From Limosilactobacillus caviae (GTDB lineage: Bacteria > Bacillota > Bacilli > Lactobacillales > Lactobacillaceae), in assembly GCF_014635905.1 (NCBI RefSeq), contig NZ_BMDS01000001.1, positions 310,001 to 374,000 on the forward strand: 64,000 nucleotides of DNA, written 5' to 3'. Positions 50,128-64,000 of the stretch are shown piece after piece. The position numbers and the translations under genes were made by a program. The notes below the pieces were generated by a model. It was not told the DNA's origin, made no database searches, and saw only the letters and a list, made by a program, of their open reading frames with translations. Each line of letters opens with the position of its first letter. Position 1 is the first letter of the stretch.

Positions 50128-50476
50128 TTAACTAATTATCCATGGATTAGGGATGCGGCCAGTTTTAATGAAATATTCAATAAAAAGGTCGATCAGTTGT
50201 GATGATAGGATGGATTTGAAGAGTAATGTCTGGTAGTTGTTCTTCGAGAATTGTTACCTGCCACTTGATGTAATAAACTGTGTCAGTCGGTAAGTTAATA
50301 AGTAGTTGTAGATCGTTAGTAACGATAGCAAGGTCGTGGCAATTATGTTCAAATTGTGCTAGTTGATCTGGCTTAAGATGACCGTGTTCTAGTGGCAGAT
50401 ACTCTTGATGTTTTTTCCATGCAGTTTGTAATAGTTTATCGAGAATAGGGATAATTTGTTTTTGCGATAAAATCAT
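50128..50476 (-). pseudogene. Small hypothetical gene with a 3' frameshift (paralogue of 61290-61670)
   Basis: ATG 50476 opens a 99-codon frame ending at 50177. Its N-terminal ILSQKQIIPILDKLL matches ILTQKEIIPILNQLL of the gene at 61290-61670. Past the stop, the next frame reads SQLIDLFIEYFIKTGRIPNP and continues to TAA 50128, matching the paralogue's C-terminus (QLTTRFTDYFIKTGRIPNP). The coding sequence therefore shifted near HPII, losing the last ~20 residues. No function recognised; a lactobacillar small protein family behind a conserved two-hairpin leader. Confidence 0.75.
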
Positions 50477-54658: not shown

Positions 54659-54671
54659 TTGCTTGGCAACG

Positions 54672-54703
54672 AAAAAAGCGCTACGTGAGTGGCGCTTTTT
54701 TCG
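54672..54703 (+). terminator. Terminator after the SEC10/PgrA-like gene
   Basis: AAAAAGCGC at 54673-54681 pairs with GCGCTTTTT at 54692-54700. It separates the surface gene from the AT-rich operon that follows. Confidence 0.85.
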
Positions 54704-54748
54704 TAATGAAAACATATGAAAAAGTGAACATATATTAAGAAAAGGAAA

Positions 54749-55741
54749 ATGAAAAAGAGTAAGTTTATTACAATATTAGCAATAATGATAATAGTTATTG
54801 CTTTGTTTACATGGTTAGAATTCAGGGGCCTTAAAAGTGATGTGTTGAGCAATACAATTGGTACATTAGCTGGAGGAATACTATCAATCCTCTTTGTTTT
54901 CTGGCAATTAAATCTGGATAAACAAAGACAGGCTAAGCAGGATATCGTTAATTTACTTAATTTAATTGACGAATTTCCATCACTGGTTAGTGAAGAATAT
55001 TTAAAGAATTATTTACGAGATATAGTTGATGATCGTAATAGATTTGATGCGGTATATGATATGCTAGATCCTTATTTCAAAGAACTTCATAAAGCAGTTG
55101 ATCAGGCAGAAACAAGTTTGATTTTACTTGGCGATAGCAATCATGATATTAAGGGATTTTTGCAAGATTCAAATATTGTTCAGATTGAATTACGTGAATT
55201 TATTCAAGAAGCTAGTGAATGTAAAAAGGCGATTATTGCTGATAAACCATATCGAATAGATGCAGCTAACCGCCTTGAATATAGAAAAAAACGAGTAATT
55301 ACTAGTATGAAAAACTTGATTAAGACTTTGGAAAATATTGCTAGTCAAGAAAAAAGCTTACAAGAAATTGATTTTAAAGGGATCACTCAGGAAGTTCATT
55401 TGTTTATAAAAGGATATGATCAGGTTTATCAGAAATTAATGGAGTTGGTGGGCAACGGTACTGTTAAACAGCGACAAGTAAATAAAAAAGACTGTTATCG
55501 TCAAAAAGACTTTACTAAACAAGTTCATGAACTAATACCAACTATTAAAAAGTATCATGCGAAATTACCAGAGACTGTTGCACGATATTATAAAAGTGGC
55601 GAGCAGAATGAAGATAAGTATAAAAATGTTATACAACAAGTTTTGCTGTATAAGGCACTTGATAAAAAAGCGGAATTCATTCAATTCAAACGTAAAGATC
55701 AGATTGGCTATTTATTTAAGGATAAACCAGGTGAGGAGTAA
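54749..55741 (+). CDS. Membrane-anchored helical protein, first gene of an uncharacterised operon
   Basis: A 330-residue protein of unknown family. Two N-terminal membrane helices (about residues 7-24 and 37-54) are followed by a long charged, helical cytoplasmic region with coiled-coil character (KQRQAKQDIVNLLNLIDEFP onward). This resembles the anchor-plus-helix layout of some phage-defence or abortive-infection proteins, but no motif confirms it. It overlaps the helicase gene by 1 nt (TAATG), so the two products are probably made together. The gene is AT-rich, unlike the housekeeping genes earlier in the window. Confidence 0.75.
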   Translation: MKKSKFITILAIMIIVIALFTWLEFRGLKSDVLSNTIGTLAGGILSILFVFWQLNLDKQRQAKQDIVNLLNLIDEFPSLVSEEYLKNYLRDIVDDRNRFDAVYDMLDPYFKELHKAVDQAETSLILLGDSNHDIKGFLQDSNIVQIELREFIQEASECKKAIIADKPYRIDAANRLEYRKKRVITSMKNLIKTLENIASQEKSLQEIDFKGITQEVHLFIKGYDQVYQKLMELVGNGTVKQRQVNKKDCYRQKDFTKQVHELIPTIKKYHAKLPETVARYYKSGEQNEDKYKNVIQQVLLYKALDKKAEFIQFKRKDQIGYLFKDKPGEE

Positions 55742-57732
55742 TGAAATTTAACTATAGTGCTTCACAGCGGGAGGCACTCACTGCAATTAAAGCTTTTATT
55801 GAAAGCAACAAAGATATATTTATACTTACAGAGCAAGCAGGAAGTGGAAAAACTGCTTTGATTCCAGAGATTAATACTATGGCTAAGCAAGTAAAAACCT
55901 TATCTGCAACAAATCAAGGGTTGAGTGATCTAATCTTTAATTATGGATTGAATGCGCACACAGTTTATCATGAATTTTATGGTACGCCTGAGAGAAGTAT
56001 ATACGGGACGCAGAATCAAATTCAAAGTATTTCTGTCAATTTTTTATTACAAACTTATTATAGCGAAAATACTATCTTTATTATTGATAATGCTGAATTA
56101 TTACCAAACATTGATAGTGGTAATACAGAGTTACAATATGGCAGCGGTAAAGTACTGGATGATATTTTACATGTTGTTATTGGTCGCCATAATAAATTAA
56201 TTTTTATTGGTGATGAGTGTGGACTAAAGCCAGTAACAGATAATCAATCGCAAGCACTTCAAATAAATTATTTTGAATCAAAAGGTCTGCATGCTGAAAC
56301 CCATATTCTGCGAGATCATCATCGGGTAACGCCCAATATCTCATACTATATTAACAATTTACAAAATACTATAAAAAATGGTGTTGGGGCGGTGTATGAA
56401 ATAACAGATAATCGCCACGATATTTTTAATTTAGACCGAACAAATCATAGTGAGCTTGAAAAAATGAAAGAGATTGCGAAAAAAGTCGCGATTTCTCCAA
56501 TTGGTAGCAGTATGATTGTTGCTAATTCAATGAAAAAAGCGCAAGAGTATAATCGCTTAATTCGTAATTTTCAGCGAAAGCAACGATTTCTTGAAAAAAA
56601 TGACCTACTAATTTTAACTAAGAATATTTATTTTGAACATGGTAACAAAATCCTCCCAACGGGTTCATTTATCTGGATTGAGTCAATTGATGGCGATCTA
56701 ATTACCCATTCTGTTAAGGTACATCATAAAAATATTGAGTTACATTTTTTGCCAGTAACGTATTGGGTAATAGTATCAGGAAAAGCAGTTAAACAGTTAA
56801 AGGGTAATTTATTAACTAATATTTTGTCAACAAACCAATCTGCTTTAGAGAACAATGATTTAGTACTATATATCGACTATTTAGATCGGCATCAAGAAGA
56901 AATTAACGAGTATAAAAAGCAAAATCAAAAAATTGAAACTGATACTGAACATCAAAAACATGATCGTCGAACAAAAGAATATTTAGAGATGTTGAAGAAT
57001 AATTTACAACAAAAGTTGAATCAATCGTTTATTAAGTGTTCAAAGAAAGAATTAAAGAAACTGCTTGTTAAATATCCTGAATGTGATCCAAAGAAACAAT
57101 GTAAACGAATAGATCCATATAAAAAAACTTGGGAACAGATTAATGAGGATCCCTTTTATAACTGTATAGTAGCAAAATACGGGTATGCAACAACGGCATA
57201 TAAAACGATTGGTAACGAATGGGAAAACATCTATGTCGATTTTGAAAATCAGAATGGGGTGAAGTCCTCAGCTATTCGGTGGGCTTATATAGCTCTTTCG
57301 CGATCAACTAAACGTTTGATTGTTTTAAATAAGCGTGGAATTTTCACGGATGGATTTAAAGTTGACAAGAAAATTGCAAGTGAAGCTAAGATAAGACAGT
57401 TGCAACAGCTTAGTAAGTTTGAGAGTGTATCTTTTGGAAGCATTCATGGGAATAAAGTATTGTTAGAACAACTATTTATTCATCTCAAAATGATTTTCCA
57501 AAAAACGGGAATCAAGTATGTAGGTATTGATACAGCAAAAGTTGCTAATAATTTTGTTCGCTATTATTGTCAACTAAAATCAGGAGAAATATTTGAATTA
57601 CAGATGTACTTTAGTCATAAAGGATGGTCAAAAGCTAATATCTATATTAGGTCGGAATATCAGGAGGAAGATTTGAAACAGATAGATCAATTTAAGCAAC
57701 AATTAGAAAAGCTAAACCCATGTAATAACTAA
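55741..57732 (+). CDS. SF1-type helicase (DUF2075/RecD-like) with extra C-terminal domain
   Basis: A 663-residue P-loop helicase-like ATPase. A Q-motif-like segment (YSASQREAL, residues 5-13) and Walker A EQAGSGKTA (Lys37) are present. Walker B reads IFIIDNAELL with Asn117 where a glutamate is usual. A GDE segment (IFIGDECGLKPV) and RVTPNISYYINNL follow. A UvrD_C_2-like motif region (ATTAYKTIGNEW, then YIALSRSTKRLIVLNKRG) spans about residues 475-530. An additional ~100-residue alpha/beta domain closes the protein. It is translationally coupled to the membrane protein upstream. Nucleic-acid unwinding or translocation is inferred. Confidence 0.82.
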   Translation: MKFNYSASQREALTAIKAFIESNKDIFILTEQAGSGKTALIPEINTMAKQVKTLSATNQGLSDLIFNYGLNAHTVYHEFYGTPERSIYGTQNQIQSISVNFLLQTYYSENTIFIIDNAELLPNIDSGNTELQYGSGKVLDDILHVVIGRHNKLIFIGDECGLKPVTDNQSQALQINYFESKGLHAETHILRDHHRVTPNISYYINNLQNTIKNGVGAVYEITDNRHDIFNLDRTNHSELEKMKEIAKKVAISPIGSSMIVANSMKKAQEYNRLIRNFQRKQRFLEKNDLLILTKNIYFEHGNKILPTGSFIWIESIDGDLITHSVKVHHKNIELHFLPVTYWVIVSGKAVKQLKGNLLTNILSTNQSALENNDLVLYIDYLDRHQEEINEYKKQNQKIETDTEHQKHDRRTKEYLEMLKNNLQQKLNQSFIKCSKKELKKLLVKYPECDPKKQCKRIDPYKKTWEQINEDPFYNCIVAKYGYATTAYKTIGNEWENIYVDFENQNGVKSSAIRWAYIALSRSTKRLIVLNKRGIFTDGFKVDKKIASEAKIRQLQQLSKFESVSFGSIHGNKVLLEQLFIHLKMIFQKTGIKYVGIDTAKVANNFVRYYCQLKSGEIFELQMYFSHKGWSKANIYIRSEYQEEDLKQIDQFKQQLEKLNPCNN

Positions 57733-57745
57733 AGCGAGGATAATT

Positions 57746-59938
57746 ATGAATGAGGAGAATACACAAGAAAGGATAAGCAGGATTAAAGAACTGCGTGATA
57801 ATTATAAAGGAAGCAATGATATTAATGAATTGAATCAGGCCTATAAGGAATGTCAAAAAGCTGACGATCAAGGTATTGATGTTAGTTGGCAGTTTCCATG
57901 GGTGATGTATGATTACCTAAAAAGATTAGCTGACGAGAATATTCGGAGCTACCTTCATACTCTAGACGTCATAAAGAATAAAGGCTTTTTTACCAATGGC
58001 AGTATTCCGCTTACAGTGCAGAAAAATTTTATTATTGCCGTTCAGAATAATATTTGTTGGGTGGCATGGAAACTAAAAGAAAAACAAGATTATCCTAATT
58101 TATTTGCGCTTTATGAGCGAGGATTTAAATATTTTGCAGATTTTGATGAGCGTTTGATTGAAAACACCAAATTATTCCATCGTGATAAGTCACAATATTA
58201 TGGTAAACAAGGATTCTTTGAGGCACTAGTAAACACTTTGGTTACTAGTGCAGATCTTCCTAAAAACCAAGCAGATTTAGATGTGTTAATTTCTAGACTC
58301 CAACAAGTAGATGAATATTTTAATAAAAAACATGTGCCATATTATTATTTTTTAGTTACTAAAATAACTAGGACTATTAGTGGGTTAACATGGAATTACT
58401 ATAAATCACAAAACGAAGAATTATTAAATAGTAGTGTGAAAGCTTATCTGAGATTAGGACTTAATTTTCCTGAAGATACTAAAATAGTTAACATTATTTT
58501 GCCGCTCATTCAAAAATATCATGGTAAGGATGATAAATATTGTGATAATTACCCGGGAAATTTTACTAAGGTCATTGATTTGCTTGATTTAGGAAATTTT
58601 TCGACGGAAGACTACGAAAAGTATCAGATTGAAGATGGGAAAAAGTATCCAGGATTAGCTGAAAGAACAGTAACTAGTTATTTAAAAGCACAGAGTAAAA
58701 GCTATTCCCACACTTCACAACAAGTAAAAGAAATTTCTGCAAAAGTTATTCCAATATTGGAAAAGCATAATGATTATACTTGGGCAATATACTTTTATTG
58801 TCAGATTTTAATCCAAGGTGGATTTTATGATAATGCGCGTAAAATTGGACTGCAATTGGTGAAAAATAATATAGCAAATCCTAATATGTGGGGACTCTTA
58901 GCGACTGCATGGCAAGAAAACTTTACCATGAAAATGGCATGTTTATATCAGGCTTGCACACGGGGAACGATGAGCCAAAATGTGCGAAAAAACTTTATTG
59001 ACGGATTAATTGCGCTGAAGGATCCTAACTATTATCCAATTGCTAAACGCGAAATTTCACAATTAAAAAATAAAGAACAAGTACAACAATATAAAAGTTT
59101 TGAATGGTTTAATGACACAAAAGAAGCAAGTAAAAATGATATTATTCCGCAACTTGATGTAGTCGTTTCTAAACTTTTGTATCCAGATGCAGAACCATGT
59201 CGTTTTTATGTTGATTGGCAAAATGAACATAATTATTGGGTAGTTATCCCGAATGCTAAAAGCAAGTTATTTGTTAGACGTAAAATTCGTAAGAAACTAG
59301 TTGATAAAAAACTAAAAACTAATCAAGGCTACAGCGCAGTTTTAATTTCTTATGATGACGACTCAACAAAAGTTAAATATGTTGGTGCTGTTAATGAAGT
59401 AAGAGATGATGAATTTACAAAATTATATATAAAAGAAGACTGTGGAGTATTTTCGGCAGTTCGGGATTTTGGGTTTATTGTTAAAGATAATCAGGCGTTT
59501 GACGAAGATTATTTCTGTAATTCAAAAATTGTCAAAGAAAATAACCTTAGAAATTACGATACGATAAAGTTCCTTGCGAAATATTCATTTGATAAGAAAA
59601 ATGAAAAGTGGAAGTGGGGCTATTATAAAATTTTGGCGGTTAACCATGCGAATCCTGCAGAATTTAAGCGAATATTCCAAGGAACTACAACCATTAAGAA
59701 GAATAGGACAGGGCATGCGTTTGCTTTTGTAGACGATGGAGATGATTCTTGCTATGTTTCTGGAGATTTGTTAACTAAAGCAGGAATTGAGTTTAATAGG
59801 GATTCTTCAACGACAGATTTTAATTCACACGACCAGTTATCACTAAAACTTCTAGCAGAGAAAAAATATAATGACAGGCGTAAGAAGTGGGAATGGGCAG
59901 CAAGCTCTATCCAAGAAGTAAATAAAGGAGTGAAATAA
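57746..59938 (+). CDS. Helical-repeat protein with two C-terminal cold-shock/OB-like modules
   Basis: A 730-residue protein of unrecognised family. The first ~470 residues are all-helical with TPR-like periodicity. The C-terminal third contains two related beta-rich modules (about residues 562-634 and 644-725): each has G-x-F/GFxFVxDxxxxDxY, then a K(N/R)(E/K)KWxW segment. They resemble cold-shock-type nucleic-acid-binding folds. GAGGA precedes ATG 57746, 13 nt after the helicase stop. Its partner in a helicase operon suggests RNA or DNA recognition; this is inference. Confidence 0.72.
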   Translation: MNEENTQERISRIKELRDNYKGSNDINELNQAYKECQKADDQGIDVSWQFPWVMYDYLKRLADENIRSYLHTLDVIKNKGFFTNGSIPLTVQKNFIIAVQNNICWVAWKLKEKQDYPNLFALYERGFKYFADFDERLIENTKLFHRDKSQYYGKQGFFEALVNTLVTSADLPKNQADLDVLISRLQQVDEYFNKKHVPYYYFLVTKITRTISGLTWNYYKSQNEELLNSSVKAYLRLGLNFPEDTKIVNIILPLIQKYHGKDDKYCDNYPGNFTKVIDLLDLGNFSTEDYEKYQIEDGKKYPGLAERTVTSYLKAQSKSYSHTSQQVKEISAKVIPILEKHNDYTWAIYFYCQILIQGGFYDNARKIGLQLVKNNIANPNMWGLLATAWQENFTMKMACLYQACTRGTMSQNVRKNFIDGLIALKDPNYYPIAKREISQLKNKEQVQQYKSFEWFNDTKEASKNDIIPQLDVVVSKLLYPDAEPCRFYVDWQNEHNYWVVIPNAKSKLFVRRKIRKKLVDKKLKTNQGYSAVLISYDDDSTKVKYVGAVNEVRDDEFTKLYIKEDCGVFSAVRDFGFIVKDNQAFDEDYFCNSKIVKENNLRNYDTIKFLAKYSFDKKNEKWKWGYYKILAVNHANPAEFKRIFQGTTTIKKNRTGHAFAFVDDGDDSCYVSGDLLTKAGIEFNRDSSTTDFNSHDQLSLKLLAEKKYNDRRKKWEWAASSIQEVNKGVK

Positions 59939-60096
59939 TGGGTGATACGCAGTACGCAGAGTTAAGAAAATATACAAGAAAGTCAAATAGTCTTGGTATT
60001 CAGGAACGTAAAAATAGTAATTGCTCAATGGACGGGATAAATTATGGCTGTGACTATAGTAATTGTATTGTTAATAGTAATTTATGCTACATATAA
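59938..60096 (+). CDS. 52-residue open frame, probably the N-terminal part of the following membrane protein
   Basis: ATG 59938 overlaps the preceding stop (TAATG) and has the best ribosome-binding site of the operon (AAAGGAGTG). The frame encodes a hydrophilic start (MGDTQYAELRKYTRKSNSLG) and then runs into Cys/Asn-rich sequence that looks like the wrong frame of the transmembrane segment of 60044-60493. A one-base shift near 60040 would join the two into one ~185-residue single-pass membrane protein. Confidence 0.5.
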   Translation: MGDTQYAELRKYTRKSNSLGIQERKNSNCSMDGINYGCDYSNCIVNSNLCYI

Positions 60097-60493
60097 GGAA
60101 AATACTGATTCAAGCTCAACACAACCTACTTCTCGACAACAGTATAAAGTTATAGAGAAAGAAAGCTTACAGAAACAAGATATAGAAAGTAATAATTCAG
60201 AGAAAATACCTCTACATTCTAAAAATAATAGGTATAATTTTACAGGCTACGTTACGGATATTAATTGGCATAATACTAAAGATAGTCAACTCCAGTGTTG
60301 GTTAACAATAGTAAGTGGTGAGCAAGAAAAGGAAATGAGTAAGTATATCAAAAAGGATATGATGGGTACTCTTCAACAATATAAAGCAATTAAAATAAAT
60401 GATTATGTTCATGTAACCTATGCTTTACGAAAAGGATATAAGAATATAAAGACATTACGAGTTTTAAAAACTGGGGAATGGTGGAATCTATAA
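60044..60493 (+). CDS. Single-pass membrane protein with OB-like extracellular or cytoplasmic domain
   Basis: A 149-residue frame with one membrane helix at residues 2-16, a polar linker and a beta-rich domain (YNFTGYVTDINW, LQCWLTIVSG, NDYVHVTYALRKGYKN) suggestive of an OB fold. The nearest upstream signal is a weak GGACGGG; the better start is at 59938 in another frame, so the gene may be frameshifted. It appears to be the last member of the 54.7-60.5 kb operon. Function unknown. Confidence 0.55.
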   Translation: MAVTIVIVLLIVIYATYKENTDSSSTQPTSRQQYKVIEKESLQKQDIESNNSEKIPLHSKNNRYNFTGYVTDINWHNTKDSQLQCWLTIVSGEQEKEMSKYIKKDMMGTLQQYKAIKINDYVHVTYALRKGYKNIKTLRVLKTGEWWNL

Positions 60494-60720: not shown

Positions 60721-60767
60721 GTTTAAAATCCGATGACGGCAGGTTTGCCATCATCGGATTTTTAAAC
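60721..60767. terminator. Bidirectional terminator
   Basis: AAAATCCGATGA-C-GGC pairs with GCC-A-TCATCGGATTTTT, extended by GTTTAAAA/TTTTTAAAC. It separates the accessory operon from the small membrane gene on the minus strand. Confidence 0.85.
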
Positions 60768-60815
60768 AAAAAAAGAACCATGACATAATGCCATAGTTCT
60801 TTCGTGAAAAGTAAA

Positions 60816-61100
60816 TCATGCGGTTGTGTGATTATTGTGGGTAACACTGTTTTCACGATAACCAAAGTAGAATTGAACAGCGGCAACGGCAATGTTTACC
60901 CAGTTCATTGTAAGGAACCAGCCGTTAAGAGCACTTGCATCGTGTGTCATGCCGTAATATACCCAAAAGCCAATTACAATTGCACATACGTTAATCCATG
61001 CGAATGTCTTTTGTAGAACTTGATTGTCAAGAGCAAACCACATCCATACAACGTTTACTACGAACCAGATTGCAAGAATCCAAAAGATAACGTCGAACAT
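60816..61100 (-). CDS. Small membrane protein (three predicted helices)
   Basis: A 94-residue hydrophobic protein with three membrane helices (IFWILAIWFVVNVVWMWFAL, then FAWINVCAIVIGFWVYY and FLTMNWVNIAVAAVQFYFGY). Start ATG 61100 follows AAAGGAG; an in-frame extension upstream lacks one. It ends in a His/Thr-rich tail. No family recognised; it appears monocistronic. Confidence 0.7.
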   Translation of the reverse strand: MFDVIFWILAIWFVVNVVWMWFALDNQVLQKTFAWINVCAIVIGFWVYYGMTHDASALNGWFLTMNWVNIAVAAVQFYFGYRENSVTHNNHTTA

Positions 61101-61289
61101 AGTATTATCTCCTTTCAAATCTGTACCTACACATACGAATAGATATGTCACCCAATAAAGAAGATTTACCTTTCACTCTCTATTATAAACTGGTTTTTAT
61201 AGTTACCAAGAAAAAAGGCTTATAATTATGCAAGAATAGTACACTTATTCCATAATGATTTAAATAAAAACGTATCAAATAGTGTGAAA

Positions 61290-61670
61290 TTAGCTAATTT
61301 TCCATGGGTTTGGTATACGACCAGTCTTAATAAAGTAGTCGGTAAAGCGAGTAGTAAGTTGTGGAGAGATAATCACAGGACGGTGTGATTCAGGGGTAAC
61401 TGGACGAACTGTTAAGTCAATTATTGGCAGCTGTTCTTCATTAATTGAAACTGACCATGAACAGTAATAAATTGTTTTGTTTGGCAAGTGAAGTAATAGC
61501 TGTATTTCTTCACTAATAATTGCTATGTCGTGGCAACTGTGAATAAATTGAGGCAACTTTGTGGTAACTATTTGGCTATTAGTAACTGGAAAAGCTATTT
61601 GGTGGTCATGCCATGCGGTAGTTAGTAGCTGATTAAGAATAGGGATAATTTCCTTTTGCGTTAAAATCAT
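61290..61670 (-). CDS. Small hypothetical protein (intact paralogue of 50128-50476)
   Basis: A 126-residue soluble protein of unknown function: an N-terminal helix pair (TQKEIIPILNQLLTTAW), a beta-rich middle (KTIYYCSWSVSINEEQLP) and a conserved tail YFIKTGRIPNPWKIS. The copy at 50 kb matches throughout but is frameshifted near the end. Both copies share the two-hairpin leader whose second hairpin covers AAAGGAG. Duplication of gene plus leader suggests a mobile or regulated small-gene family. Confidence 0.7.
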   Translation of the reverse strand: MILTQKEIIPILNQLLTTAWHDHQIAFPVTNSQIVTTKLPQFIHSCHDIAIISEEIQLLLHLPNKTIYYCSWSVSINEEQLPIIDLTVRPVTPESHRPVIISPQLTTRFTDYFIKTGRIPNPWKIS

Positions 61671-61844: not shown

Positions 61845-62942
61845 ATGAATGACTTCCTTCGTAAAAAATGGGAGATGGCGGGCTTAGCTGATGATTACAT
61901 TTTTAACAAGGTCATGTTAGATTATGATATCTGTTTAGAAGTTTTACGCCGAATTTTACCTGATTTGCATATTAAAAAGATTGAGTTGCCGAATAACCAG
62001 CAAGAATTCGCCCTGGCTCCCGATGCTAAGGCTGTTCGTTTTGATATTTATACTACGGATGAAGCAGGTAACCACTATGATGTAGAGATGCAGGTTGCGG
62101 ACCATCATAATATTGCTAAACGGATTCGCTACTATCAGACTGCTAGTTCAATGGAGGCTTATGACAAAGGGCAGCCTTATGAGCAGGCTGATGATTCTTA
62201 TGTAATTTTCTTTTGTAATTTTGATCCCTTTCACCTCGACCAGCAACGTTATGTACTGCATAAACATATTGATGGATTACCGAAATATATAGTTGAGGAT
62301 GGGCAAACCGATATTTTATTTAATGTTCCCTCATTGAAACATGATGTTGATCCAAAGATGCAGGCATTTTTAGATGTGATTGCCCAACGGAAAGTTGAAG
62401 AGACCGATCCGCTTGTCGTAAAATTAAAGAAGCGAATGACAGTTGTAAAGCGGAATCGGAAATGGAGGTCGGAATATATGCGACGCTCATTATATGAAAT
62501 GGATCAAGAGGCTCGTGAACGTAGGATCCAAGAGGGGGAACGTAGACTTCAAGAAGGAGAGCGCAAAATCCAAGAAGGGGAGCGCAGACTTCAAGAAGGG
62601 GAGCGCAGACTTCAAGAAGGGGAGCGCAGACTTCAAGAAGGAGAACGTAAAATTAAAGAAGGGGAACGCAGGATTCAAGATGGAGAGCGTAAAATTAAAG
62701 AAAAAGAACAGAAAATTCAAGATGTGCAGGAAAATTTAAAGGAAAAAAACCGTAAAGTTCAGGAAGAAGAACATAAGTTAAGCAGAGAAAAACAAAGATT
62801 ACAAGAAAATCAGCAAAATTTGATTAAAAAGTTTATCGAAGGACTACGTGAATATGGTGTTGATGAAACAGCTATTAAAGAAAAAATAAAAGATAATTTT
62901 AGCCTTTCAGATACTGAAATAAAAGATTATTTTTCTAAATAG
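61845..62942 (+). CDS. Rpn-family PD-(D/E)XK nuclease/transposase-like protein with heptad-repeat tail
   Basis: A 365-residue protein. The N-terminal ~260 residues match the Rpn (recombination-promoting nuclease, transposase_31-like) family: MAGLADDYIFNKVMLDYD, then a PD-(D/E)XK core with RFDIYTTDEAG and YDVEMQ. Residues ~225-295 are about nine heptads of the form (R/K)(R/K)(L/I)QEGE encoded by 21-bp DNA repeats, predicted as a coiled coil. The last 70 residues are charged and helical. The AAGGAG site lies 13 or so nt before ATG. It is likely an accessory element, not a bona fide transposon here. Confidence 0.85.
   Translation: MNDFLRKKWEMAGLADDYIFNKVMLDYDICLEVLRRILPDLHIKKIELPNNQQEFALAPDAKAVRFDIYTTDEAGNHYDVEMQVADHHNIAKRIRYYQTASSMEAYDKGQPYEQADDSYVIFFCNFDPFHLDQQRYVLHKHIDGLPKYIVEDGQTDILFNVPSLKHDVDPKMQAFLDVIAQRKVEETDPLVVKLKKRMTVVKRNRKWRSEYMRRSLYEMDQEARERRIQEGERRLQEGERKIQEGERRLQEGERRLQEGERRLQEGERKIKEGERRIQDGERKIKEKEQKIQDVQENLKEKNRKVQEEEHKLSREKQRLQENQQNLIKKFIEGLREYGVDETAIKEKIKDNFSLSDTEIKDYFSK
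62518..62700 (+). repeat. 21-bp tandem repeats encoding heptads
   Basis: About nine near-identical 21-bp units of the type GAAGGGGAGCGCAGACTTCAA lie inside the Rpn-type gene; the three copies at roughly 62576-62638 are almost exact. Each unit adds one heptad without changing the frame, so copy number can vary by slippage. Confidence 0.85.
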
Positions 62943-63061: not shown

Positions 63062-64000
63062 ATGAAAAAAATAGCACTAATTATGTCCCTTTCGTTCATT
63101 ATTTTAGTAATGGGTGCTTGCGGAAGAACACATTCTGTTACTAAAACAAGTAGTGATACGACTAGTTCTTTGTCCAGTAGTCAACAAGCAAAAGATGATG
63201 TTTCATTGAACGCCGCGCAGTTAACTCCTGAACAGACAGCGGCCCTTGTTTTATATTATGGGGATGCGCACATGCCAGGGGCTGATAATTATGATTACTC
63301 TGCTAATATGGAAAAACGTGACCAGGGCGCAGTAGTAAAAATATATGATAGAAAAGCGGTCCCACAAGGAGAAGGTCCCACTGATAAATCATACCCTGAA
63401 GGAGCAAAAGAGCTTTATACCGTTAAACTAACTTCTGGTACTAATGAGAATGGACACCGTTTAAATTCAATTTATTATACAATTGTTGGCAAGAAAATTT
63501 ATTATGCAGATAGTCGGGGCAGCATCCGTAAAACAGGGGTAACCTTGAATGAAATGGTGACATATGCCAAAACTCACGGGGAAGTAAATCGTATCTTAAA
63601 TGTAGCTCAAAATACTCAGATTATGGACATGCGGGGCAAAGTTACAATCACCGATAAAGATGGTTTAACGACTCAACAACTAGGAACAATGGTTGCCCTC
63701 TCAAAATACCCTGATTGGTTTAAAGATCATGTTCAGAGTGGTGCGATGTACTATGGCACGCATTATGGTTATGGTGAAGTCTCGGATTATCAATATGTAA
63801 CAACTAATGGCGATCTAACTAGCTATATTTGGTTTAAACGTGATGGCAATAGTGTCACAATCAAAACAATTGAGCCAGATAAGAATCAAAGTATAGCAGA
63901 AACTCCGATGACCACTACCCATACGACAGTCTCAGCCCTAACAAATGAGAATCAACAAAATGAAGTTAATACGCTTGCAGATCAATTAAAGGCAATCGAC
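63062..64000 (+). CDS. Lipoprotein, 3' end beyond the window (partial)
   Basis: ATG 63062 follows AGGGGAG, and TATAAT lies about 45 bp upstream near 63019-63024. A lipoprotein signal (ALIMSLSFIILVMGAC) ends with a lipobox Cys near residue 20. The mature part begins with a Ser/Thr-rich linker, then a globular region with LNAAQLTPEQTAALVLYYGD. The frame stays open for at least 313 codons to the window edge, so the C-terminus is missing. Its family is not recognised; repeated Y/D/G-rich segments suggest an extracellular beta-rich domain. Confidence 0.8.
   Translation, partial: MKKIALIMSLSFIILVMGACGRTHSVTKTSSDTTSSLSSSQQAKDDVSLNAAQLTPEQTAALVLYYGDAHMPGADNYDYSANMEKRDQGAVVKIYDRKAVPQGEGPTDKSYPEGAKELYTVKLTSGTNENGHRLNSIYYTIVGKKIYYADSRGSIRKTGVTLNEMVTYAKTHGEVNRILNVAQNTQIMDMRGKVTITDKDGLTTQQLGTMVALSKYPDWFKDHVQSGAMYYGTHYGYGEVSDYQYVTTNGDLTSYIWFKRDGNSVTIKTIEPDKNQSIAETPMTTTHTTVSALTNENQQNEVNTLADQLKAID

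What the first reader, a model, noticed from the sequence alone, without database searches (positions are those of the whole stretch)
54749..60493. Four-gene AT-rich operon: membrane anchor, SF1-like helicase, helical-repeat protein with cold-shock-like modules, small membrane protein
The genes overlap or nearly touch (1-nt overlap, 13-nt gap, 1-nt overlap), share low-GC composition unlike the flanking housekeeping genes, and sit between terminators in an accessory region. A membrane-tethered helical protein with an NTPase and a putative RNA/DNA-binding repeat protein is a plausible defence or nucleic-acid surveillance module. I recognise no described system with exactly this composition; the functional role is inference.
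Basis: inference. Interest (0 to 1): 0.85.

Follow-up and report, generated by a model that had tools for sequence, protein, structure and literature searches.

The report
Nested membrane-and-sensor gene cluster, candidate phage defence
A lactic-acid bacterium carries a pair of genes from a known class of suspected virus-defence systems tucked inside a separate pair of membrane-protein genes, which suggests such sensors can be slotted into interchangeable membrane parts, although no function has been tested.

Summary
The four genes are real, but the reading changes. Genes 2 and 3 match PDC-M16A and PDC-M16B, a catalogued candidate anti-phage pair. They carry parts of the TOTE conflict systems (TPR, OB, TBP, Effector): a TPR-like solenoid, S1/CSD OB modules and one TBP-like repeat. 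The pair is conserved: 42 of 46 long PDC-M16A-like loci have the partner, 40 of these 42 within 60 nt. Gene 2 has lost otherwise conserved helicase residues, so it is probably an NTP-binding pseudo-helicase. Genes 1 and 4 are a different unit. In another species of the genus their homologues lie 42 nt apart without genes 2-3. In a third the syntenic site holds only a broken gene 4. So a TOTE pair is nested between two membrane genes. Relatives of gene 1 or 4 also lie near a Cap4/Lmu-like pair and a Mokosh-like helicase (one case each). Gene 4 does not start at the 1-nt overlap. I take it as a new variant of a known kind, probably a membrane-tethered nucleic-acid sensor; function is untested.

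The parts
54669..54704 (.). terminator-like inverted repeat between the upstream LPXTG surface-protein gene and gene 1
   Evidence: arms 16 nt, 94%, 4 nt loop; not listed by the scan
54749..55741 (+). gene 1: 330 aa, two hydrophobic (transmembrane) segments then a predicted all-helical part; homologues in 2 of 49 other genus genomes
   Evidence: AF2 single-sequence model pLDDT 49.5, all helix, too poor to search
55741..57732 (+). gene 2: 663 aa, PDC-M16A, SF1 (RecD/Pif1-like) NTPase with decayed motifs II, III, IV and V
   Evidence: (6.2e-70)
57373..57729 (+). gene 2 C-terminus: one TBP-TOTE-like repeat (two in most relatives, one also in the two NERD-type relatives scanned)
   Evidence: hhalign against the relatives' repeat 2: probability 96.7%, E 4e-10; against repeat 1: 50.9%; 15 column-shuffles at most 0.3%, reversed 1.1%; window sequence alone 78.8%. 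Counts of stretches in relatives:
57746..59938 (+). gene 3: 730 aa, PDC-M16B, TPR-like solenoid (1-478), DUF7017 (346-464) and OB modules
59462..59623 (+). S1/CSD-like OB module (S1CSD-TOTE-2, residues 573-626)
   Evidence: 41.9 bits against cut-off 27; 97.7%
59651..59935 (+). second copy of the S1CSD-2 type module (residues 636-730)
   Evidence: 95.3%, E 2.4e-8; low confidence in the structure model
59938..60093 (+). 52-codon ORF with a strong Shine-Dalgarno that overlaps the stop of gene 3; its first part (59939-60027) has no BLAST match in either relative; possible remnant of a donor gene
   Evidence: forced gapped alignments run a little into it; no relative found in plasmids
60044..60493 (+). 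gene 4: 149 aa, one hydrophobic segment and a conserved C-terminal domain (QCWxT...KYI...GYxNI in three sequences)
60722..60765 (.). terminator-like inverted repeat downstream of gene 4
   Evidence: not listed by the scan

Best explanation
The locus is a composite. An inner TOTE-type pair (gene 2, PDC-M16A; gene 3, PDC-M16B) sits between two membrane genes (1 and 4) that also exist as a pair without it. SHOWN by sequence: membership of genes 2-3 in the pair; TPR-like and OB modules; a TBP-like half; loss of catalytic helicase residues with Walker A kept; the gene 1-gene 4 pair without the core in one relative; and a syntenic site with only a broken gene 4 in another. INFERRED: gene 3 binds foreign nucleic acid (RNA, ssDNA or a transcription or replication intermediate) through its OB modules. 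Gene 2 works as an NTP-dependent switch rather than a motor and contacts nucleic acid with its TBP half, perhaps as a dimer. The TPR solenoid relays this to the two membrane proteins. These hold the sensor at the membrane, where injected DNA enters, and on activation they disturb the membrane or stop the infection. Also inferred: the pair was inserted after the stop of gene 1 and brought about 100 nt of a donor gene along.
Confidence: 0.55

Rival explanations
1. The four genes are one inherited system: a TOTE core with its own membrane effector genes. G027 and G039 are relatives that lost the core (or the core plus gene 1) by deletion. Nothing was inserted.
For: Tight spacing of genes 1-2-3, uniform low GC of the four genes (0.29-0.33), gene 4 relic in G039.
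Against: The first part of the 52-codon ORF after gene 3 has no BLAST match in either relative and looks like carried-over donor sequence. L. salivarius has the core with different partners. No second genome with all four genes was found.
Confidence: 0.3
2. The core is a decaying, non-functional import: gene 2 is losing its catalytic motifs and the locus is on its way out, as in G039.
For: Loss of the Walker B Glu and other conserved residues, very long branch, broken gene 4 in G039.
Against: 663- and 730-codon frames are intact, with genes 1 and 2 overlapping; Walker A, R195 and motif VI Arg521 are kept. Three Bacilli relatives of the NERD-nuclease type (Pfam NERD shown for two of them) have also lost motifs IV-VI with open frames, which suggests a second, non-motor mode.
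Confidence: 0.15
3. A housekeeping nucleic-acid or RNA-surveillance operon without a defence role.
For: TPR plus OB plus SF1 NTPase also fits RNA quality control (a Ski complex chain appears among the matches).
Against: Genes 2 and 3 match in 1 of 95 relatives each, the window's own genome. Relatives are scattered over phyla and occur on plasmids (gene 2: 72 records; gene 3: 3 records). Some lie in restriction and BREX loci.
Confidence: 0.08

Closest known systems
PDC-M16 (PADLOC candidate phage-defence pair M16A/M16B)
   Same: Both genes match, in the same order and adjacent.
   Different: Of six M16A relatives scanned, four have two TBP-TOTE stretches and two (NERD type) one; three carry an N-terminal DUF4145, two NERD, one neither; 33 of 34 others keep the motif II Glu. 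Here: one TBP-like repeat, decayed motifs, no N-terminal domain, an extra OB copy, and two membrane genes around it.
TOTE conflict systems (TPR, OB, TBP, Effector), named in PMC12458937 passages that cite Aravind, Iyer and Burroughs 2022 (not read)
   Same: TPR-like, OB (S1CSD-TOTE-2) and TBP-like parts.
   Different: No recognised effector; the candidate effector/anchor pair (genes 1, 4) also occurs as a separate unit.
PDC-M16 operon of Ligilactobacillus salivarius DSM 20555 (L048/L055)
   Same: Nearest relative found, same two-gene core, grouped with the window at 100/98 support although both branches are long; one TBP-like repeat length at the C-terminus.
   Different: About 30% identity; upstream partners are an AAA+ ATPase and two proteins without a fitting Pfam family, downstream two lipoprotein-like genes by eye.
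Mokosh (MkoA/MkoC helicases)
   Same: SF1 helicase; a gene 4 relative in G023 lies downstream of a MkoC-like helicase.
   Different: The window's gene 2 matched no Mko model in PADLOC.

Membership tests
PDC-M16 | M16A-type SF1 NTPase | tested here: met
   E 6.2e-70 (best stretch: model 1-412 of 691; 2 stretches)
PDC-M16 | M16B partner directly downstream | tested here: met
   13-nt gap; E 1.6e-24
TOTE | TPR solenoid | tested here: met
TOTE | OB (S1/CSD) module | tested here: met
   PF22707 41.9 bits over 27
TOTE | TBP-like domain | tested here: met
   by profile comparison only, one repeat (window sequence alone 78.8%); PF22721 not listed by hmmscan for the window but 137-140 bits in relatives L031 and L033
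TOTE | Effector component | not testable with these tools
   genes 1 and 4 match no named domain over its cut-off (relatives)
Active SF1B helicase | motif II Asp-Glu, motif III Gln, motif V Gln-Gly (motif names recalled) | tested here: not met
   DN, G, IG in the window against 33/34, 33/34 and 34/34 conserved
Mokosh | MkoA/MkoC-type helicase | tested here: not met
   no Mko family at E up to 1 for gene 2

The most novel reading that the evidence does not exclude
Genes 1 and 4 are a previously undescribed membrane 'chassis' pair of this genus into which exchangeable nucleic-acid-sensing defence modules are slotted: a TOTE pseudo-helicase pair in the window, with a Cap4/Lmu-like pair beside the gene 1 relative in G011 and a Mokosh-like helicase beside the gene 4 relative in G023. 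The sensor is thereby moved to the membrane and coupled to one common effector.
Probability: 0.2. Interest if true: 0.75.

Novelty: new variant of a known kind. Interest (0 to 1): 0.55.

Why it matters
TOTE systems are predicted from sequence, and I found no experiment on PDC-M16 in the held open-licence library (searches; subscription papers are not covered). This locus gives a compact test. It has a natural comparison (core plus membrane pair here, pair alone in G027, relic in G039), a predicted pseudo-helicase that would show whether the system needs ATP hydrolysis at all, and membrane genes that may be the missing effector. Nesting of one unit inside another would also show how defence modules gain a membrane output.

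Tried and rejected
Fourth gene read from 59938: stops in frame; rejected, gene 4 starts near 60044. Gene 1 structure: single-sequence model pLDDT 49.5; not searched. Gene 1 and 4 in plasmids and phages: no match; their relatives from G027 (gene 1) and G023 (gene 4) in plasmids: no match. Gene 1 and gene 4 in viral contigs: none confirmed; genes 2 and 3 in viral contigs: none confirmed. Whole-locus DNA in plasmids: none. 52-codon ORF in plasmids: none. Solved structures by sequence for genes 2 and 3: nothing below E 0.45. Gene 1 in a family sample: 7 of 251 genomes including its own, the other six weak (E 7e-5 to 0.007). The best of these, L141, is a 195-aa protein which I judge by eye to lie among phage genes, treated as only a generic similarity. 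Gene 4 in a family sample: 5 of 251 including its own, the other four at E 0.004 to 0.01; with the 3-row profile 2 of 59, the second one weak (3.6e-4) and not followed. Gene 4 as OB fold: profile comparison with the TOTE OB and TBP modules gave at most 0.2%, so I do not claim it. First OB of gene 3 (484-552): strands in the model, but profile comparison with the relatives' first OB gave 0.8%, so S1CSD-TOTE-1 is not claimed. Order and phylum scans with PDLC04476: 9 of 395 at E 1e-15 and 1 of 398 at 1e-25. In the order scan seven of the nine genomes match only in frames of 705-864 aa, which I suspect are RecD2-like and did not check. Class scan with PF22860: 25 of 299, 10 over the cut-off; I fetched 6 of the 24 other genomes' regions, of which 3 held an M16A/M16B pair, 1 a weak M16B-like ORF and 2 neither by my models. 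The fold search on gene 3 covers only 3-459; the OB part was barely tested. The motif count used 34 of the 46 long loci (12 cut short, split, or otherwise left out), the gene 3 model 35 of the 42 with a partner. The neighbour listing was cut in output, so I saw only part of the loci.

Papers: PMC12458937 read as passages only; PMC11514479 passages only, no PDC-M16 among the passages shown; the other papers were seen as listings only; Aravind 2022 not read. The picture of Mokosh and of superfamily 1 motifs is recalled.

Full report
WHAT IS THERE. Four + strand genes lie at 54749-55741, 55741-57732, 57746-59938 and 60044-60493, between two terminator-like inverted repeats (not listed by the scan). 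The locus has GC 0.319 against 0.387 for the window, and 1 of 583 windows of the same length is as low or lower. The third junction is different. The ATG at 59938 opens a 52-codon frame, with a good Shine-Dalgarno, that is not the frame of the membrane protein. Gene 4 starts near 60044.

THE PAIR IS CONSERVED. By my models 46 of 80 have a long (580 aa or more, or split) PDC-M16A-like helicase; 42 of these 46 have PDC-M16B, and 40 of the 42 lie within 60 nt of it (one overlaps by 88 nt, one is on the other strand). Of the remaining four, three (L100, L104, L127) have another ORF directly downstream which my model did not recognise, and one ends at the contig end. The other 34 loci have short helicases of 469-546 aa, and in 0 of 34 was the partner found. 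The helicase tree puts the window with L. salivarius (100/98), both on long branches, so the place is unsure. In named records the pair lies among type I restriction genes (Shewanella plasmid) and beside a BREX BrxC-like gene (Herbaspirillum); in L104 an ORF that reads like Cas9 by eye lies downstream. I picked these cases, so they are examples and not a rate.

A PSEUDO-HELICASE. In 34 relatives (of the 46 long loci) motif II is Asp-Glu in 33 (Asp-Asp in L. salivarius), motif III Gln in 33, the residue after R195 Gln in 33, and motif V His and Gln in 34. The window has Asn, Gly, Val, Tyr and Ile at these places, while the Walker A GSGKT, R195 and Arg521 are kept. I infer NTP binding with poor or no unwinding. 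Three Bacilli relatives (NERD nuclease domain shown by Pfam in the two scanned) have lost motifs IV-VI in another way, so non-motor PDC-M16A proteins may have arisen twice.

THE MEMBRANE GENES ARE A SEPARATE UNIT. Gene 1 has homologues in 2 of 49 other genus genomes: G027 (E 1.1e-59) and G011 (E 3.1e-16). Gene 4 has them in 3 of 49: G039, G027 and G023. None of these four genomes has a match to gene 2 or gene 3 (1 of 95 each, the window's own). In G027 the gene 1 homologue (37% over 334 columns) is followed after 42 nt by the gene 4 homologue (38.7% over 106 aa), again downstream of an LPXTG surface-protein gene. In G039 the site is syntenic: DNA matches run from window 50567 into the surface-protein gene, and again at 60028-60103, 60213-60470 and 60759-61196 (76-91%); one further short match (63674-63839) is out of order. 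Genes 1-3 are missing, and gene 4 is broken. So genes 2-3 sit between two genes that occur together without them. The stretch 59939-60027 has no BLAST match in either relative; I read the 52-codon ORF as carried-over donor sequence, which favours insertion, but loss is not excluded.

NEIGHBOURS OF THE MEMBRANE GENES. In G011 the gene 1 relative (frame broken between the two membrane segments) lies about 640 nt after a PDC-M46A/PDC-M46B pair (Cap4 nuclease and LmuB-like ATPase). In G023 the gene 4 relative lies downstream of a helicase that matches MkoC at 9.2e-61, with a 55-aa ORF between. These are two cases, each with gaps that do not prove one operon.

HOW IT MAY WORK. Shown: the domain content, the lost residues, the nesting. 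Inferred: gene 3 senses nucleic acid by its OB modules; gene 2 is an NTP switch with a TBP half; the TPR scaffold passes the signal to the two membrane proteins, which tether the complex at the site of DNA entry and may act on the membrane. I put about 0.55 on the whole picture, with defence as its role. The nesting itself is firmer than the mechanism.

VERDICT. A new variant of a catalogued but, as far as I could find (open-licence papers only), experimentally untested system kind. It is not an unknown system, and not ordinary either.

Noticed in passing
L032, L056 and other Bacteroidota loci (e.g. L057, L058, L091, L122, L125, L128): PDC-M16 pairs are often preceded by genes that start like receiver proteins (by eye; the output was cut). 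Pfam confirmed a Response_reg domain in two genes tested (L032, L056; a third gene, L056 4640-5365, had no family) and a reverse transcriptase in L032. Possibly a TOTE system under receiver control with a reverse transcriptase.
   Followed up: partly
L048 12456-16396: In L. salivarius the pair follows an AAA+ ATPase gene (PF00004) flanked by two genes that resemble proteasome-like Ntn hydrolases by eye only; no Pfam family over its cut-off was found for them.
   Followed up: partly
L049, L050, L051: Bacilli PDC-M16A proteins with an N-terminal NERD nuclease domain (Pfam in L049 and L050; L051 not scanned) and decayed helicase motifs IV-VI.
   Followed up: partly
L150 2335-6302: PDC-M46A (Cap4 nuclease) and PDC-M46B (LmuB-like) pair, then a gene 1 relative whose frame is broken between its two membrane segments.
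   Followed up: partly
L155 9107-12708: MkoC-like helicase gene, a 55-aa membrane ORF and a gene 4 relative in a row on one strand.
   Followed up: partly
window 50177-50476 and 61290-61670: Two similar small - strand genes (both begin MIL.QK.IIPIL) on either side of the region, as if it had been duplicated or had recombined (by eye).
   Followed up: no
window 61845-62942: PDDEXK_2 transposase-family protein with a long run of near-identical coiled-coil repeats (EGERRLQ).
   Followed up: no
34 of the 80 loci (e.g. L060, L074, L092): Short PDC-M16A-like helicases of 469-546 aa; the M16B partner was found in 0 of 34 by my model; many come from Bacteroidales/Dysgonomonas records: perhaps a separate family.
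   Followed up: no
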